A DNA stretch of 64,000 nt from Thermoplasmata archaeon (GTDB lineage Archaea; Thermoplasmatota; DTKX01; JAHFTX01), in assembly GCA_023265395.1 (NCBI GenBank), contig JAHFTX010000004.1:53481-117480 (forward strand), read 5' to 3'. The notes below the pieces were generated by a model. That model searched no databases and had not been told where the DNA came from. It worked only from the letters and a program-made list of their open reading frames with translations. Numbering within the stretch: the stretch's first letter is position 1; each line of letters begins with the position of its first letter. This document shows, piece after piece, positions 33,095 through 39,477 of the stretch. Both the position numbers and the translations under genes were made by a program.

Positions 33095-34783
33095 ATGAAC
33101 AACGACCGCGCCATCGCACGCAAGAGCCGAACGGACGAACGCCCCACTGAGGCGGACGCCCCGACCAACGGCCCTGGCGCCGCGTTGCAGCCCCAGGCGG
33201 CAGCGCCGACGAGCGGGCAGGAGGATGCCCTGGTGCTCCAGGCGCGCGCCCACCACGACGAGCTCGAGCAGCTGCGCGAGGGGCACGACCGTGAGGTCCG
33301 CGACCTGCGCTGGGACCTCAGCCAGAAGGAGCGCTCCCTCTCCTCCTTGCAAGGGCAGCTGCAAGTGGTCGAGGAGCGGATGCGCAAGGTCCAGGAACCC
33401 CCGCTGATCTACGCCTACATCCTGCGCCTGGCTGGCTCCGACCTAAGCGAGAGCGAGGTGGCGGTGGTCCGTGGGAGCGACCTGCTCAAGGTCTCCACCG
33501 GTGCGATGGACAAGGCGACGCTGGGCCTGGGCCAGTACGTCTGGCTCCATCCGCAGAGCTACGCCATCATCGGCGCCAGCGACCAATACCACAAGGGGAT
33601 CATCGCCCGCGTCTTCGACATCGACGAGCATCGCCTGGTGCTCTCCCTCGGTGAGGGCTCCGAGCGCCGCGTGCTGCCGTTGCCGGTGGGGTTGGAAGCC
33701 CCCCTCAAGCCCGGCTACCAGCTGGCGGTGCTCCCGCCCTCGCTGGAGGTGCTCGAGGTCCTCCCCTCGCTGGAGGTACGGGACCTCTTCCTTGGGGAGC
33801 GCCCCAACGTGCGCTACGGCCAGATCGGTGGCCACAGCGGGATCATCGAGCGGATCAAGGACGTGATGGTCCTGCCCTTCGAGGAGACCGCGCTCTTCGA
33901 GCGCGTCGACCTGCAGGCCCCCCGCGGAATCCTGTTGCACGGCCCCCCCGGCTGCGGCAAGACCATGCTGGCCAAGGCGATCGCCACCGAGCACCAGATG
34001 ACGTTCTTCAACGTCTCGGTGGCCGACATCCTCAGCAAGTGGGTCGGCGAGAGCGAACGCATCATCCAGGAGCTGTTCAAGCAGGCCAAAGAGCGTGCGC
34101 CCTCGATCATCTTCTTCGACGAGATCGAAGCGCTGCTGACGACCCGTGGCCGCCAGGACACCTCGGGGGTGCACAAGAACATCCTCGGCCAGATCCTCGC
34201 CGAGATGGACGGGCTGCTCAGCCTGCGCGACGTCTTCGTCGTCGGCGCCACCAACCGCCCCGACATGCTCGACCCCGCGCTGCTGCGCCCCGGCCGCTTC
34301 GACGAGATCATCGAGGTGCCGCGACCGGACCGTTCGGGGGCGGCCGAGGTGCTTCGAGTCTACCTCCATGACGGATTGCCGCTCCATCCGAGCGGACGCG
34401 CCCAGGGGCAGTCGCCCACGGAAGCATGGGAGGCGCTGCGCTCGGCCGTCCTTGACGAGATCTACGGTGACGATGCCTGGATCAAGGTCAAGGTCGACCC
34501 CGAGGCGCACGAGGCGGTCAAGACCCTGCTCCGCCGCGACGTCATCAGCGGCGCCATCCTCGCCGCCGTGGTGCGCACCGCCAAGAAGAACTACGTCAAG
34601 CGCGTGCGCGGCCTCACCCCCGACGAGCAACAGGCCGATGGCATCAGCCATGCCGACCTGAGCGCAGCCATCGAGGAGGAGACCATCGAGCACGCGCTGA
34701 CGGAGTACTACACCTTCCAGAAGCGCCAGCGCGAGCTGCAGCGCGCCCAGACGGAGGAATGGGGCGACCCGATGGTCGGGTAG
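33095..34783 (+). CDS. arc: ARC/Mpa-type proteasomal AAA+ ATPase
   Basis: 562 residues. A charged N-terminus precedes a coiled coil (about 45-100), two OB-like beta domains (about 102-170 and 175-230), the linker PNVRYGQIGG, and one AAA+ module. Walker A is GPPGCGKT (283-290), pore loop KWVG (315-318), Walker B IIFFDEIE (338-345), sensor 1 ATNRPD, Arg finger LRPGRFD. After sensor 2, the segment AVLDEIYGDDAWIKVKV followed by DVISGAILAAVVRTAKKNYV matches the ARC-specific C-terminal region (SGAMIQNVVDRAKKNAIK in Mpa), not archaeal PAN. In actinobacteria ARC unfolds pupylated proteins into the 20S proteasome. The usual C-terminal GQYL or HbYX is absent; the chain ends WGDPMVG. AAGGAG precedes the chosen ATG. 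First gene of the operon. Confidence 0.88.
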   Translation: MNNDRAIARKSRTDERPTEADAPTNGPGAALQPQAAAPTSGQEDALVLQARAHHDELEQLREGHDREVRDLRWDLSQKERSLSSLQGQLQVVEERMRKVQEPPLIYAYILRLAGSDLSESEVAVVRGSDLLKVSTGAMDKATLGLGQYVWLHPQSYAIIGASDQYHKGIIARVFDIDEHRLVLSLGEGSERRVLPLPVGLEAPLKPGYQLAVLPPSLEVLEVLPSLEVRDLFLGERPNVRYGQIGGHSGIIERIKDVMVLPFEETALFERVDLQAPRGILLHGPPGCGKTMLAKAIATEHQMTFFNVSVADILSKWVGESERIIQELFKQAKERAPSIIFFDEIEALLTTRGRQDTSGVHKNILGQILAEMDGLLSLRDVFVVGATNRPDMLDPALLRPGRFDEIIEVPRPDRSGAAEVLRVYLHDGLPLHPSGRAQGQSPTEAWEALRSAVLDEIYGDDAWIKVKVDPEAHEAVKTLLRRDVISGAILAAVVRTAKKNYVKRVRGLTPDEQQADGISHADLSAAIEEETIEHALTEYYTFQKRQRELQRAQTEEWGDPMVG

Positions 34784-34832
34784 GTCGCACTCCCGACCAC
34801 GACGGAGAATGCGACCACAGGCAGGTGCACAG

Positions 34833-36128
34833 ATGCTCCCGATGATTCAGGGTACCGAGCACGAGTACACCCTCTACCACCGGCGCCTGCAGGAGCAGGG
34901 GGTCGACCCGCACACGGTCGGCCTCCGGCTCCTGCGGGAGTCGGACCTGCATGCCGCAGGGGAGTTCACCACCAACCAGAGCCGCGCCTACTACGACGTC
35001 GGCCATCTGGAGATCTCGACGCCGGAGGTCACCAACGCCATCGACCTCGTCGTCTGGGAGAAGGCCGGCGAGAAGATCGTCGACTGGTTGCGCAAGGTCA
35101 TCGAGGAGCGCTACCTCTCCGCCGGGGAGCGGTTGCTGGCGCTCAAGAACAACACCGCCCCCGACGGCACCAGCTACGGCTCCCACGAGAACTACTGCGT
35201 CCCGCGCTCGCTGCCCTTCCCCGATGCCTACGTCCGTGGGCTGGTGCCACACTTCGTCAGCCGCATGATCTACACCGGCGCCGGGGACCTGCTCGACGGG
35301 CGCTACGTGCTCAGCCCGTCGCTGTACAAGACCTCGGTGATGGTCTCGGGCAACACCATGCATGGCACCGGGCTGCTCAACACCCGCGACGAACCCCACG
35401 CCGCCCCCGAGCGCTGGCGCCGTCTCCACGTGCTCGTGGGCGACGCGCTCATGAGCGAGCCGGCGATCCTGCTGCGCCACTTCACCACCCAGGGCATCCT
35501 CCAGCTGCTCGCCGAGGGCAAGCTCGAGGATGCCCCACAGCTGCGCCAGCCGCTGGAGGACATGTGGACGATCGTCGAGCACACCAACCCCGAGCGGTGG
35601 TGCTTCGACCTCGTCGGTGGCGGCACCATCTCCCCCATCGCGGTGCAACGCTACTACCTGGCCAAGGTCGAGACGCTGGTGAACGAGCCCTGGGAGCGGC
35701 AGACCCTGCAGCGCTGGGAGCGGGTGCTCGACCTGCTCGAAGCCCGCGCCACCCACAAGCTGGCGCGCTGCGTCGAATGGGTCGACCGCTACATCGCCAT
35801 CGGCGAGGCGGTGGCGTCGTTCCCCGACGACCCGGAGATGGCCATGAAGGCGGCCAAGCAGTATTCCGAGGTCGGGGCCGACCGCAGCATCTTCTACCAG
35901 CGGCAGGCCGACGGACTGATCGACCGCATCATCGACGACGAGCAGATCATCCATGCGATCCACCACCCGCCGCACGACACGCGCGCGGCGCTGCGTGCCC
36001 GGCTGTGTGCCCTCCATGAGGTCACCGGCATCGACTGGGCACGCCTGACCCACAAGGTGGACGGGGAGCTCCAGCGGCTGGTCCTGGACGACCCCTGGGC
36101 GACCGAGCTGCCAGCAGGAGGTGACTAA
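34833..36128 (+). CDS. pafA: PafA/Dop family protein (Pup ligase-like carboxylate-amine ligase)
   Basis: 431 residues. Glutamine-synthetase-like fold of the PafA/Dop family, which attaches Pup to lysines (PafA) or deamidates/removes it (Dop). Signature blocks: GTEHEY (7-12), YYDVGHLEISTPE with presumed catalytic D55, KNNTAPDGTSYGSHENY (105-121), and NTRDEPHA (183-190). The stretch between the first two blocks is about 40 residues, as in PafA; Dop has a much longer one with its Dop-loop. So a ligase is more likely. Only one family member is present here. It starts 49 bases after the ARC stop, with AGGTG upstream, and its last codons (GGAGGTGAC) are the ribosome-binding site of the next gene. 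Confidence 0.9.
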   Translation: MLPMIQGTEHEYTLYHRRLQEQGVDPHTVGLRLLRESDLHAAGEFTTNQSRAYYDVGHLEISTPEVTNAIDLVVWEKAGEKIVDWLRKVIEERYLSAGERLLALKNNTAPDGTSYGSHENYCVPRSLPFPDAYVRGLVPHFVSRMIYTGAGDLLDGRYVLSPSLYKTSVMVSGNTMHGTGLLNTRDEPHAAPERWRRLHVLVGDALMSEPAILLRHFTTQGILQLLAEGKLEDAPQLRQPLEDMWTIVEHTNPERWCFDLVGGGTISPIAVQRYYLAKVETLVNEPWERQTLQRWERVLDLLEARATHKLARCVEWVDRYIAIGEAVASFPDDPEMAMKAAKQYSEVGADRSIFYQRQADGLIDRIIDDEQIIHAIHHPPHDTRAALRARLCALHEVTGIDWARLTHKVDGELQRLVLDDPWATELPAGGD

Positions 36129-36132
36129 GACC

Positions 36133-36315
36133 ATGACCCAACAGCAGGAGCAACGCAAGGCCAAGAAGGGTGATGCCGACGAGGCGCCACTCTCCTTCGA
36201 GGTCGGCAAGGTGTTCTCACCCAGCAAGGGCCTCGACCTGAGCGTCGCACAGGACAGCGCGCGCTACAGTGCGCGCAAGGGTCAGGGTGGTGACCGCCGC
36301 CAAGCGCTCGCCTAG
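36133..36315 (+). CDS. Pup-like small modifier candidate
   Basis: 60 residues, the size of bacterial Pup. It begins MTQQQEQRKAKKGDADEA, a polar, disordered-looking start like that of Pup. The middle is EVGKVFSPSKGLDLSV, and the end reads DSARYSARKGQGGD followed by RRQALA. ARYSARKGQGGD is comparable to the Pup ending VRAYVQKGGQ or VRSFVQKGGE, but here the GG is followed by Asp and a six-residue tail. If it is a modifier, the tail would need removal, or the attachment chemistry differs. It starts 4 bases after the PafA/Dop stop, with a near-perfect Shine-Dalgarno GGAGGTGA, so the three genes are coupled. Position arc-pafA/dop-pup matches actinobacteria. Similarity is too short to be decisive. 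Confidence 0.7.
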   Translation: MTQQQEQRKAKKGDADEAPLSFEVGKVFSPSKGLDLSVAQDSARYSARKGQGGDRRQALA

Positions 36316-36514: not shown

Positions 36515-38221
36515 ATGCGTTCGTTCCCAGCACTGCTCGCGGCCGCGATCCTCCTTGGAAGCCTCCTCCTGACGAGCACCGTCACCGGAGCGCCGACCCC
36601 CACGCCACTGGGGTCGATCAAGGCCTTCGAAGCCGAACTGGCACTTGCACGAACAAACGTCTCGACCAACGCCACTGCGGCGCTGGCGCACCTCGAGACG
36701 GCCAGAGGGCTCTACGTCACCAATCTCCAGCCGACAGCAAGAGCCCGCGATGCTGCGACGGACAAGTTCGTCCTTGCCGAGCTGACCGCCGCAACGGAGC
36801 GGATCGCCGCCGGGGACGTGACGGGCTTCGCGGTCGAATCCCAGTACCTCAAGAAGGTCCAATACCGCATCGCCTACCTGCAGATGTGGTACCACCTCAA
36901 TGTCTCGAGCGATGTGGGGAAGGCAAAGCCCTGGTTCGACGTGCTCGCATGGAAGTTCAAGTGGACGGCCGATGACGAGGCCGTCCATGCGATGGAGGAG
37001 ATCCTCGAGGACCCAGGGACGCTCTCCCATGAGAGTCAGGAGATCCATGAGGCGACCATCGAGCAGTTCGTCGACAAGGTCGTCGAGGAGGGGTCCGAGG
37101 CCAAGGGCAACCTCGTCAAGGACCGCGCCGAGGCGCGCGAGCAGGCCGCAGAGGCGACCGCCTACTTCATGGCCATCGGCGAAGAGGTCGAAGAGGAGTC
37201 GGGCGCTGAGACGCGCTATGCCATCGAGGGGTACCTCCACGCGCTCGTCGTCGCCGTCGACGCCGATGACGCCACGTCCCTGGCGAGGGCGCTTGCGGGG
37301 TACCAGAGCTTGCTGACCTACTTCGAGACGGGCTACCGACCGGGCGATCTCGCCGGGGCCACGGCCCGGATCGCCACCCTGATGGACCTCGTGGTCAAGG
37401 AGTACACCCTCGCCGTGGGGCCGGAGGGCGGCTCCATCCTCGATCAGGAGGAGTATGACGAGGCGGTGCTCTTCGCCAACGACGCCAAGGGGCTCTTCGG
37501 ACAGTCCTTCGCTGAAGCCTACCAGGCCGATGCCGATCTGACGGTGGACGTCTTCGCGGACATCAACGCCACGATCACCCTGATCGAGCAGAAAGCCCGC
37601 CCCTCGCAGGTCGATGTCGAGGTGCTGGAGGTCAAGGCCCACCTGGCGGAGATCGGTGGAGGTCCGGGGGGAGAGCCCCTCACCCCGGCGCAGCACATCG
37701 AACGGATCGAGGAGCTGCTCGACAAGGCGGTCGCAGAGTACAAGGAAGGGGATCACGCGGCCGCGGGCGACGTCGTGACGGAGGCGTACATCTACCACTT
37801 CGAAGGGATCGAAGCACCCCTGGCGGCCAAGGACCAGGACCTCATGGAGAACCTCGAGGTGGCGATCTCCACCGACTTGCGGCGGATGATCGAGGAGGGA
37901 AAACCAACCTCCGAGGTCGAGGAGAAGGTCCGCTCGATCAAGGGCGACCTCGTCGAGGCGGAGGGGCTCCTCTCGGGGCAGACCCAACCGAGCACGGCGC
38001 AACCTTCCGGGCCCTCCCCGATGCTCATCGCCATCTTCGTCGGCGTCATCGCCATCGAGAGCCTGGCAGTCCTCTATCTGTGGGCACGGCTGGAGGCTGC
38101 CCGGCGACCCCTCGATGCGGCCGGTGCCACAGCGACACCGCGGCACGGTGGAGGAACCCGCCCGACCGCAGACAACACAGCGGATGACCACCGCAGTCGC
38201 GGGGGGCACGACGAGGAGTGA
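36515..38221 (+). CDS. Membrane-anchored extracellular partner of the FTR1 iron permease
   Basis: 568 residues. Signal peptide 1-25, a long helical, acidic ectodomain, one C-terminal membrane helix (around SPMLIAIFVGVIAIESLAVL) and a His/Arg/Asp-rich cytosolic tail. The ectodomain holds repeats of a helical module: for example KEGDHAAAGDVVTEAYIYHF followed by EGIEAPL. The FTR1 protein encoded next has the same module at its N-terminus (DLAQSAYLDHYEVLEIPL). The conserved H-(F/Y)-E and nearby acids could bind iron. It overlaps the FTR1 start by four bases (GTGA), so the two are translationally coupled. Role as an iron-capture or ferroxidase-like subunit is inferred from context. Confidence 0.8.
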   Translation: MRSFPALLAAAILLGSLLLTSTVTGAPTPTPLGSIKAFEAELALARTNVSTNATAALAHLETARGLYVTNLQPTARARDAATDKFVLAELTAATERIAAGDVTGFAVESQYLKKVQYRIAYLQMWYHLNVSSDVGKAKPWFDVLAWKFKWTADDEAVHAMEEILEDPGTLSHESQEIHEATIEQFVDKVVEEGSEAKGNLVKDRAEAREQAAEATAYFMAIGEEVEEESGAETRYAIEGYLHALVVAVDADDATSLARALAGYQSLLTYFETGYRPGDLAGATARIATLMDLVVKEYTLAVGPEGGSILDQEEYDEAVLFANDAKGLFGQSFAEAYQADADLTVDVFADINATITLIEQKARPSQVDVEVLEVKAHLAEIGGGPGGEPLTPAQHIERIEELLDKAVAEYKEGDHAAAGDVVTEAYIYHFEGIEAPLAAKDQDLMENLEVAISTDLRRMIEEGKPTSEVEEKVRSIKGDLVEAEGLLSGQTQPSTAQPSGPSPMLIAIFVGVIAIESLAVLYLWARLEAARRPLDAAGATATPRHGGGTRPTADNTADDHRSRGGHDEE

Positions 38222-39477
38222 ACCGGACCCGGGTCCTGGTGGCCCTGGCGGTGCTCGCCCTGTTGCTGCTCCCGACAGGATTCGCAGCCGCTGCCTCGCC
38301 TCCGGACTATCGCGGCGAGATCCAACGGGCGCGCGAGCTCGTGGTCGAGGCCATCGAGGCGCACCGTCAGGGCGACTTCTCCCGCGCGTACGACCTTGCG
38401 CAGTCTGCCTACCTCGACCACTACGAGGTGCTCGAGATCCCGCTGCGACCGCGCGATGCCACCCACGTCTTCGAGATGGAGGTCCTCTTCAGCGACTTCC
38501 GCGGGGCGATCCAGCGGAGGGACCCGGTGGCGATCGTCGAATCCTACGGTCAGCGCATCCTGCGCGGGCTCGACACGGACGAGCGGCTGCTCTACGAACC
38601 GGGCCCCGAGGCGACGGGGATCATCCTCACGACCTCGTTCGTGATCATCTTCCGGGAGGGCCTCGAGGCGGCGGTCCTCGTGGGGATCATCCTCGGCTAC
38701 CTCGAGAGCTCCCGTCAGGCGAAGTTGCGTCGGTACGTCTACTACGGCGTCGTGGCCGCGGTCGGCGGAAGCCTGCTCATGTGGGGCGTCGCCAGCTACC
38801 TCATCTCCGTCAGCGGCCTGCAGCGCGAGCTCGTCGAAGCCATCGTCAACATCCTGGCGGTGGTGGTGCTCTTCCATGTCAGCTTCTGGGTGGTGCGGCG
38901 GATCGAGTGGAAGCGCTGGATGGAGTTCATGCGCGCCAAGGTGTGGTACGCCATCTCCTCGGGCGCCGGTGCCAGCCTCACGGCGGTGGCCTTCGTGGTA
39001 GTCTTCCGGGAGGGGTTCGAGACCGTGCTCTTCTACCAGGCGATCGTGCTGGCAGCCTCGGGCTTCGAGTGGGCGGTGGTCGCTGGGTTCGCGGCCGGGA
39101 CGATCGCCCTGTTGGTGGTCAGCCTCGCCATCCTGCGCTTTGGCGCCAAGCTGCCGACGAAGCTGTTCATGGTGGTGACCGTCGCGATCTCCTGCTTCCT
39201 GTCGGTCGCCCTCATCGGACGAGGCGTGCGAGTGCTGCAGAAGATCGACTACGTTCCCCTCACGCGGATGGACGGGGTCGGGGTACCCAACCCCTTCCTC
39301 CAGGACGTCCTGGGGTTCTATCCTACCTGGGAGACGGTCCTTGCGCAGGTGGCCTTGCTGATGGTCTACATCCTGGGCCTGCTCTTCGTGGTGGTGATCC
39401 GTCCGGCGGCACATCGTGCCGAAGGGGTCGGCAAGGCACAACCGATCGCGGCACAGGCAGGGGATGCCGATGAGTAG
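38218..39477 (+). CDS. FTR1 family high-affinity iron permease
   Basis: 419 residues. Signal peptide or first helix, an extracellular helical module (about 30-125), then seven membrane helices. The two family-defining REGLE motifs are FREGLEAAV (REGLE 146-150) and FREGFETVL (REGFE 264-268), whose acids bind iron during transport. FTR1/EfeU proteins import ferric iron coupled to ferrous oxidation. Start GTG overlaps the previous gene by four bases; the stop overlaps the next gene by eight. Regulated most likely by the iron box at 36456. Confidence 0.94.
   Translation: MNRTRVLVALAVLALLLLPTGFAAAASPPDYRGEIQRARELVVEAIEAHRQGDFSRAYDLAQSAYLDHYEVLEIPLRPRDATHVFEMEVLFSDFRGAIQRRDPVAIVESYGQRILRGLDTDERLLYEPGPEATGIILTTSFVIIFREGLEAAVLVGIILGYLESSRQAKLRRYVYYGVVAAVGGSLLMWGVASYLISVSGLQRELVEAIVNILAVVVLFHVSFWVVRRIEWKRWMEFMRAKVWYAISSGAGASLTAVAFVVVFREGFETVLFYQAIVLAASGFEWAVVAGFAAGTIALLVVSLAILRFGAKLPTKLFMVVTVAISCFLSVALIGRGVRVLQKIDYVPLTRMDGVGVPNPFLQDVLGFYPTWETVLAQVALLMVYILGLLFVVVIRPAAHRAEGVGKAQPIAAQAGDADE

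What the first reader, a model, noticed from the sequence alone, without database searches (positions are those of the whole stretch)
33095..36315. ARC - PafA/Dop - Pup-like operon in an archaeal chromosome: a candidate archaeal pupylation system
Seen: three consecutive same-strand genes. They encode an ATPase with ARC-type coiled coil, double OB and ARC-specific C-terminal segment; a PafA/Dop protein with all family motifs; and a 60-residue polar protein 4 bases downstream behind a GGAGGTGA ribosome-binding site. Known: actinobacterial pupylation loci have the order arc-dop-pup, and Pup-like UBact systems occur in some other bacteria. Inference: the archaeon, which should have a 20S proteasome elsewhere, tags proteins by a Pup-like route. 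I know of no described archaeal pupylation system.
Basis: partly seen in the sequence, partly recalled or inferred. Interest (0 to 1): 0.95.

Follow-up and report, generated by a model that had tools for sequence, protein, structure and literature searches.

The report
Archaeal Pup-like protein-tagging system
This archaeal genome carries, side by side, genes for a proteasome ATPase, an enzyme of the Pup-ligase family and a 60-residue protein, and about thirty other archaeal genomes carry relatives of the enzyme and the small protein, so these archaea likely mark proteins with a small Pup-like tag before predicted destruction by the proteasome, a route that the papers searched describe only in bacteria.

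Summary
Window 33095-36315 encodes an ARC/Mpa-type ATPase, a PafA/Dop-family enzyme (Pfam Pup_ligase E 2.8e-81; model closest to solved Dop and PafA) and a 60-aa protein. Seventeen loci in public genomes, all titled archaeal, carry the enzyme; 15 have the small gene just downstream and contig ends cut the other two. Among 389 genomes of the phylum the small gene occurs in 7 of 8 with the enzyme and 0 of 381 without; in a related class, in all 23 of 300 with the enzyme, plus one at a contig edge.

The small protein is not Pup by sequence. Near its C-terminus it carries KG[E/Q]GGDR; the third residue is Gln (68) or Glu (53) in 121 homologues, as expected of a Pup-type attachment residue, but usually six residues follow it. 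The enzyme forms a clade outside bacterial Dop and PafA, mostly one per genome, without the Dop-loop; the Arg that contacts Pup's C-terminus is Thr in 21 of 21. Most likely this is a one-enzyme archaeal pupylation system. ARC was not found in some carriers, no biochemistry exists, and no paper found describes archaeal pupylation.

The parts
33095..34783 (+). ARC/Mpa-type AAA ATPase (562 aa): coiled coil, two OB-like segments, AAA domain; C-terminus DPMVG
   Evidence: TIGR03689 E 3.4e-96; N-terminal profile hits Mpa E 4.5e-6; Foldseek top 30 all Mpa (model pLDDT 72.3, pTM 0.52)
34809..36128 (+). PafA/Dop-family enzyme (439 aa), no Dop-loop; predicted ligase or ligase/deconjugase for the tag
36117..36124 (+). 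Shine-Dalgarno-like GGAGGTGA inside the end of the enzyme gene
   Evidence: sequence
36133..36315 (+). 60-aa Pup-like tag protein, new family; ends ...SARYSARKGQGGDRRQALA (an upstream in-frame GTG at 36121 would give 64 aa)
   Evidence: alignment A2; 424 homologous clusters; co-occurrence
36283..36285 (+). Codon CAG of Gln51, the E/Q-toggling residue predicted to be the attachment site (after deamidation to Glu)
   Evidence: 68 Q / 53 E / 0 other among 121 homologues
36286..36312 (+). Nine-residue tail GGDRRQALA after the attachment residue (six residues, mostly GGDRR[TAS], in 114 of 120 homologues)

Best explanation
The three genes encode what is most likely an archaeal pupylation system, in which the PafA/Dop-family enzyme is predicted to join the side chain of one Glu of the 60-residue protein to lysines of other proteins, and the ARC ATPase would pass those tagged proteins to the 20S proteasome. 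Shown: the three genes, the tight co-occurrence of enzyme and tag, the enzyme's family and predicted fold, its conserved catalytic residues, the exclusive Glu/Gln choice in the motif KG[E/Q]GGDR, and proteasome-family genes in every carrier genome checked. Inferred: (1) where the residue is Gln, the enzyme first deamidates it to Glu, as Dop does for Pup; (2) it phosphorylates the gamma-carboxylate with ATP and transfers it to a lysine, as PafA does; (3) the tail most likely stays on, so the tag is attached through an internal Glu, because the Arg that contacts Pup's C-terminus in PafA is Thr in all 21 archaeal enzymes aligned, with trimming first nearly as likely; (4) one enzyme does the work split between PafA and Dop in bacteria; (5) the tag's polar, Lys-rich N-terminus is threaded by ARC into the proteasome. 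The confidence given is for the pupylation-type reading as a whole, tail kept or trimmed.
For: Operon order arc-dop-tag as in bacteria: 12 of the 17 archaeal loci have a whole arc directly before dop (gap 3-8 bp in the eleven measured), and 15 of 17 have the tag gene just downstream of dop; in the other two the contig ends inside the tag gene or inside dop. Co-occurrence: PF03136 in 8 of 389 phylum genomes, own included, tag in 7 of 389, all among those 8 (Fisher p 3e-14), and the eighth has dop cut by a contig end; in G042 tag and dop lie about 129 kb apart on one contig. In the class of RBG_19FT_COMBO_69_17: 23 of 300 with PF03136, 24 of 300 with the tag, overlap 23, the 24th at base 112 of a contig (p 1.6e-33). 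ARC N-terminus in 5 of 389, all among the 8. E/Q toggle 68/53/0 in 121 homologues (68/52/0 in the 120 caught by a pattern that left the residue free), the only one of 39 conserved-block columns with a near-even E/Q mix, with at least 4 changes on an 18-locus tree. Fold. D94, E99, H155, R227, H231, R239, H241 invariant in 21 of 21; R221(Dop)/R201(PafA) is Thr in 21 of 21. PF00227 genes in 15 of 15 other carriers tested and in the own genome.
Against: No biochemical evidence of any conjugate. The tag has no detectable homology to Pup: 0 of 18 members match Pfam Pup at E up to 10, while a bacterial Pup control matches at 4.1e-18, and hhalign against that one Pup finds nothing. ARC was not found in 3 of the 8 phylum carriers, one of them 95% complete, although that search scored only part of the candidates in some genomes. 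The ARC tail is not the GxYx of Mpa. ARC and enzyme score under the curated equivalog cut-offs. T217 and N225 are kept in only 16 of 21, and ten positions near-invariant in bacteria differ in the archaeal enzymes, so the R-to-T change could reflect general divergence. One enzyme per genome is not universal: three of 23 class carriers show two matches, at least one of them partial. The E/Q states are fewer changes than shuffled labels give (4 against a mean of 6.3), so they are partly clade-bound.
Confidence: 0.75

Rival explanations
1. Same system, but the tag is made as a precursor: a peptidase first removes the tail so that KG[E/Q] becomes the C-terminus, and only then is it deamidated and ligated, as in bacterial pupylation. 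(This is a branch of the best explanation; its odds are part of that 0.75.)
For: Bacterial Pup is attached through its C-terminal Glu, and PMC3511204 likens Pup preparation to the processing of the ubiquitin precursor (passages). The conserved GGDRR could be a peptidase site. M16 peptidase domains were found downstream in the two loci typed by Pfam (L029, L043), with homologues in other loci.
Against: No peptidase gene is shared with the window's locus: only arc and dop matched between the window region and the other loci. The Arg that contacts Pup's C-terminus is absent in 21 of 21 enzymes.
Confidence: 0.35
2. Only deamidation or another gamma-glutamyl modification of the small protein happens: the enzyme is a regulator of the free peptide and nothing is conjugated to protein lysines.
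Confidence: 0.12
3. A bacterial pupylation locus recently acquired or mis-binned, not an archaeal system.
For: Patchy spread: 0 of the 4 other genomes of the window's class searched carry the enzyme. The window's neighbouring genes were not tested phylogenetically.
Against: 17 of 17 loci are in records titled archaeal; a tree splits archaeal from bacterial enzymes at 100/100 support on a long branch; in a length-filtered search the next matches, Dop-like and bacterial where named, start at 228 bits against 409-479 for the four archaeal-type ones above them; operon composition is typical of the window.
Confidence: 0.03

Closest known systems
Actinobacterial Pup-proteasome system (ARC/Mpa, Dop, Pup, PafA)
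   Same: Gene order arc-dop-pup, PafA/Dop-family enzyme, ARC-type ATPase, small polar tag with KG and an E/Q near the C-terminus, proteasome genes in the genome
   Different: In archaea; mostly one enzyme instead of two; enzyme lacks the Dop-loop and the Arg contacting Pup's C-terminus; tag not homologous to Pup by sequence and with a tail after the E/Q; proteasome genes not in the loci read; ARC without GxYx tail
UBact systems of gram-negative bacteria (Lehmann et al. 2017, seen only as a reference entry)
   Different: Bacterial. No UBact sequence was available to compare, so similarity of the tags is untested here
Single-copy Planctomycetes Dop/PafA homologue (PMC7947786, passages)
   Same: One enzyme related to both Dop and PafA
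   Different: Reported to align partly with the Dop-loop and to share 29-31% identity with both; no tag described in the passages read
SAMP/Urm1 tagging in archaea
   Same: Archaeal ubiquitin-like tagging linked to the proteasome (abstracts in the listing)
   Different: Different chemistry (beta-grasp tag, E1-like enzyme; recall and passages); the window's genome also has four ThiS-family matches, so both routes could coexist

Membership tests
PafA/Dop (Pup ligase / depupylase) family | Significant match to the Pup_ligase family model | tested here: met
   PF03136 E 2.8e-81, 274 bits, cut-off 25
PafA/Dop (Pup ligase / depupylase) family | Fold of Dop/PafA | tested here: met
PafA/Dop (Pup ligase / depupylase) family | Catalytic Asp and active-site residues | tested here: met
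   D94, E99, H155, R227, H231, R239, H241 (Dop numbering; D94, H155 and H231 named, the rest recalled as active-site) invariant in 21 of 21 archaeal rows; T217 and N225 in 16 of 21; R205 and R221 lost. GxExE present
Dop (depupylase) proper | About 40-residue Dop-loop, and score over the Dop equivalog cut-off | tested here: not met
   No loop in 21 of 21 archaeal rows; 227.4 bits against cut-off 492.3
PafA (ligase) proper | Score over the PafA equivalog cut-off, clustering with PafA | tested here: not met
   223.4 bits against cut-off 551.3; separate clade. Lacks the Dop-loop as PafA does, and matches PafA at several diagnostic sites
ARC/Mpa ATPase | Coiled coil, tandem OB domains, AAA domain, best match to the ARC family | tested here: met
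   TIGR03689 is the best NCBIfam match of the three ARCs scanned, though under its curated cut-off; N-terminal profile and Foldseek rank Mpa first; predicted long helix 43-98 before the strands
ARC/Mpa ATPase | C-terminal GxYx proteasome-docking tail | tested here: not met
   Ends PMVG or VEVM in the 17 archaeal rows; GxYx stated in PMC6466877 (passage)
PAN (archaeal proteasome ATPase) | Score over PAN cut-off | tested here: not met
   249-258 bits against cut-off 500; a true PAN is elsewhere in the genome
Pup (PF05639) | Sequence match to the Pup family | tested here: not met
   0 of 18 members at E up to 10; bacterial control positive
Pup (PF05639) | Glu or Gln as the attachment residue at the very C-terminus | tested here: not met
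   Only E or Q at the position (68 Q, 53 E of 121) but followed by a tail
Pupylation (the process) | Isopeptide between tag Glu side chain and target lysine | not testable with these tools
   Needs biochemistry or mass spectrometry
UBact | Sequence similarity to UBact | not tested

The most novel reading that the evidence does not exclude
Archaea have their own, ancient branch of pupylation: one bifunctional PafA/Dop enzyme, outside the bacterial ligase/depupylase pair and possibly resembling the state before that duplication, attaches a new tag family to lysines through an internal Glu with its C-terminal tail left on, so that the attachment point is branched in mid-chain and not terminal as in Pup.
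Probability: 0.3. Interest if true: 0.95.

Novelty: new variant of a known kind. Interest (0 to 1): 0.88.

Why it matters
Pupylation is treated in the passages read as a bacterial pathway: the phylogeny in PMC7947786 lists only bacterial phyla for Dop and PafA and suggests an origin in Actinobacteria. A third enzyme clade in archaea reopens where the pathway arose, may offer an undivided enzyme for asking how ligase and depupylase split, and provides a testable archaeal degradation tag beside SAMP/Urm1 tagging.

Tried and rejected
Rejected: PAN identity of the ATPase; binning artefact; homology of the tag to Pup. Viral-contig scans with a bacterial PafA-like protein, the window's enzyme and the tag profile found no confirmed relative. 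Plasmid and phage records gave only 2 plasmid records and 1 phage record with a distant relative of the enzyme, used as controls. The AAA tree gave only weak support for joining the archaeal ARC with the one bacterial ARC piece (52/86), and that piece is frameshifted, so I do not lean on it. The apparent ARC-Dop fusion in L046 looks like a frameshift artefact; P0123 and P0124, listed with both domains, were not followed. The root of the PafA/Dop tree was not determined, so 'before the duplication' is a possibility, not a result.

Rows dropped and limits: L040 (frameshifted C-terminus) was left out of the enzyme alignment with bacteria and P0222 (partial) out of the tree. The tag profile A2 contains the tags of 5 of the 7 phylum hits (G016 and G042 were not in it) and at most 13 of the 24 class hits. 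The 121 tags counted are P0002 plus the 120 best listed of 424; the pattern left the E/Q position free, that did not. In one search only 7997 candidates were scored and 120 of 4768 listed. In one search some genomes had only part of their candidates scored. The odds of the trimmed-tail branch were set to 0.35 on re-reading, because a higher figure contradicted the stated lean to a kept tail.
Full report
Observation. The window encodes, on the + strand, an ATPase (33095-34783), a PafA/Dop-family protein (34809-36128) and a 60-residue protein (36133-36315), the last behind GGAGGTGA and 4 bases after the preceding stop. The ATPase matches the ARC/Mpa model best (TIGR03689, E 3.4e-96, under its curated cut-off) and PAN models less well. 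The second protein matches Pup_ligase at 2.8e-81 and Dop and PafA chains in the PDB. The small protein matches nothing in Pfam, NCBIfam or the PDB.

Genome. The window lies on a 117,480-base contig of a 2.78 Mb, 75-contig assembly, 88.7% complete with 1.7% contamination. That assembly holds one PF03136 gene, two archaeal proteasome alpha genes and one beta, a separate PAN over its curated cut-off, two proteins with two AAA domains each, Cdc48-like, and four ThiS-family matches. One relative with the enzyme, G032, is the record titled Thermoplasmatales archaeon SW_10_69_26 (same 80,645-base contig). That this places the phylum in Thermoplasmatota is recall. Other Pfam hits in the window include TruD, citrate synthase and acyl-CoA dehydrogenases; their own phylogeny was not tested.

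Conservation as a set. A scan of named genomes found 17 loci with the enzyme, all in records titled as archaeal, several with depth labels that suggest soil; I call that group the soil clade. Twelve have a whole arc directly upstream; 15 have the small gene just downstream; in the other two the contig ends inside the small gene (L030) or inside dop (L044). In 389 genomes of the window's phylum, own included, the enzyme is in 8, the small gene in 7, all within those 8, and the eighth is cut at a contig end. In G042 the small gene and dop sit about 129 kb apart on one contig. In 300 genomes of the class of RBG_19FT_COMBO_69_17 the enzyme is in 23 and the small gene in 24, overlapping in 23; the remaining one lies at base 112 of its contig. 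Fisher p values are 3e-14 and 1.6e-33. The profile used was built from part of these genomes (see limits), and genomes are related, so the p values are only a guide. The ARC N-terminus is in 5 of the 389, all among the 8; it was not found in G032, G037 and G046, which are 95, 76 and 75% complete, so ARC may not be strictly coupled. All 15 other carrier genomes tested have PF00227 genes; only some were typed as archaeal alpha or beta. Between the window region and the other loci, only arc and dop matched by blastp among ORFs of 80 residues or more.

The tag. A profile of 18 copies (9 with Gln, 9 with Glu) found 424 protein clusters at E up to 1; those of the 120 listed that bear a name are called hypothetical proteins. 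In P0002 and those 120, the block K-G-x-G-G-D-R is invariant but for one K-to-T, and x is Gln in 68 and Glu in 53, never anything else. In 39 columns of the conserved block this is the only near-even E/Q mix; the next is 88% E and 11% Q. On the enzyme tree of 18 loci at least four changes are needed, against a mean of 6.3 for shuffled labels, so the change recurs but is partly clade-bound. The copies in the other lineages (L013 to L017) read KGQAGTR. Bacterial Pup is used with a C-terminal Glu, or Gln that Dop deamidates (PMC3511204, PMC6466877, passages). The archaeal toggle is what such chemistry predicts. The difference is the tail: six residues in 114 of 120 copies, nine in P0002 and longer in five, nine in the window. 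Sequence homology to Pup was tested and not found, with a positive control.

The enzyme. A tree of 21 archaeal and 22 bacterial rows separates archaeal from bacterial enzymes at 100/100 with a branch of 1.46; bacterial Dop (99.9/100) and PafA (100/100, three rows) are each separate clades, and the unnamed P0149 joins PafA at 84/85. The tree is unrooted. In one search the four archaeal-type matches score 409-479 bits and the next, Dop-like and bacterial where named, 228 (the length filter was chosen to exclude most archaeal proteins). The archaeal enzymes lack the Dop-loop in 21 of 21. At the diagnostic positions of PMC7947786 (section 6 read) they are PafA-like at V65, G66, S194 and D439 in 21 of 21, F54 in 17 and A37 in 19, Dop-like at S101 in 20 of 21, and neither at many others. 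R201 of PafA, which makes a weak salt bridge with Pup's C-terminus (PMC8599861, section 6 read), aligns with R221 of Dop; it is Arg in 23 of 23 bacterial rows and Thr in 21 of 21 archaeal rows, and R205 of Dop is also lost. The block is ungapped there. It is one of ten such clade-wide differences, so it suggests but does not prove a tag without a free C-terminus at that point. Fourteen of 16 carriers have exactly one enzyme match; G042's gene is split by contig ends and G394 has a second partial match. In the class set 20 of 23 have one; G394, G480 and G579 have two, with G480's both partial and G579's second partial.

Mechanism. The most likely reading is a pupylation-type cycle: deamidation where needed, gamma-phosphorylation of the Glu, transfer to lysine, and ARC-driven delivery to the 20S core. 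All four steps are inferred. Whether the tail is kept or trimmed is undecided; I lean slightly to kept, on the Arg loss, the conserved tail and the absence of a peptidase gene shared by the loci.

Literature. Searches for pupylation with archaea or UBact, for UBact, for PafA/pupylation with archaeal terms, for pupylation with Thermoplasmatota, for phrases such as archaeal pupylation, and for PafA with Thermoplasmata showed no paper describing an archaeal system. Searches returned no paper at all; of the others I saw the rows listed (20 of 62, 30 of 923, 15 of 23) and passages or a section of the papers cited. The library holds open-licence PMC papers only. NCBI already names one homologue 'proteasome accessory factor PafA2 family protein [Thermoplasmata archaeon]' (P0126).

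Noticed in passing
L069:6463-6633, L070:4026-4196, L071:1129-1422: Divergent, stand-alone copies of the tag in three genomes, again ending G[E/Q]GGDRRA. L071 (3.6 kb contig) also carries a match to a phage DNA polymerase exonuclease subunit family (phrog_403, E 3.2e-16), so a virus or mobile element may carry a copy; 4 other ORFs of it had no PHROG match.
   Followed up: partly
L054:1677-2920, L055:1773-3036: Several soil-clade carriers have an extra adjacent beta-alpha proteasome gene pair of archaeal type; the pair of L054 is under the NCBIfam cut-offs. A dedicated core for ARC is a possibility.
   Followed up: partly
L029:10407-12863, L043:10624-11880: M16 peptidases downstream of the operon; possible tag trimming enzymes, not matched beside the window's operon.
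   Followed up: no
L015:8184-8513, L016:8109-8429, L017:9023-9373, L014:4136-4594: Small HTH protein (weak IclR/TrmB-like match in L015) just upstream of dop in four loci outside the soil clade.
   Followed up: no
L015:10188-11276, L014:1261-2292: Presenilin/signal-peptide-peptidase-type membrane protease (PF06550 in L015) downstream of the tag gene, with a homologue in L014.
   Followed up: no
L046 (MT835496.1 39700-49064): Record labelled 'UNVERIFIED: Bacteriophage sp.' carries actinobacterial-type arc, dop, pup (ending KGGQ) and pafA; it looks like a bacterial scaffold.
   Followed up: partly
window 36515-39477: Downstream of the operon, a 568-aa protein without Pfam match and an FTR1-type iron permease, not matched beside the operon in the other loci.
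   Followed up: no
P0123, P0124: Predicted proteins joining ARC and the enzyme in one chain; source contigs not shown, so fusion or assembly error is open.
   Followed up: no
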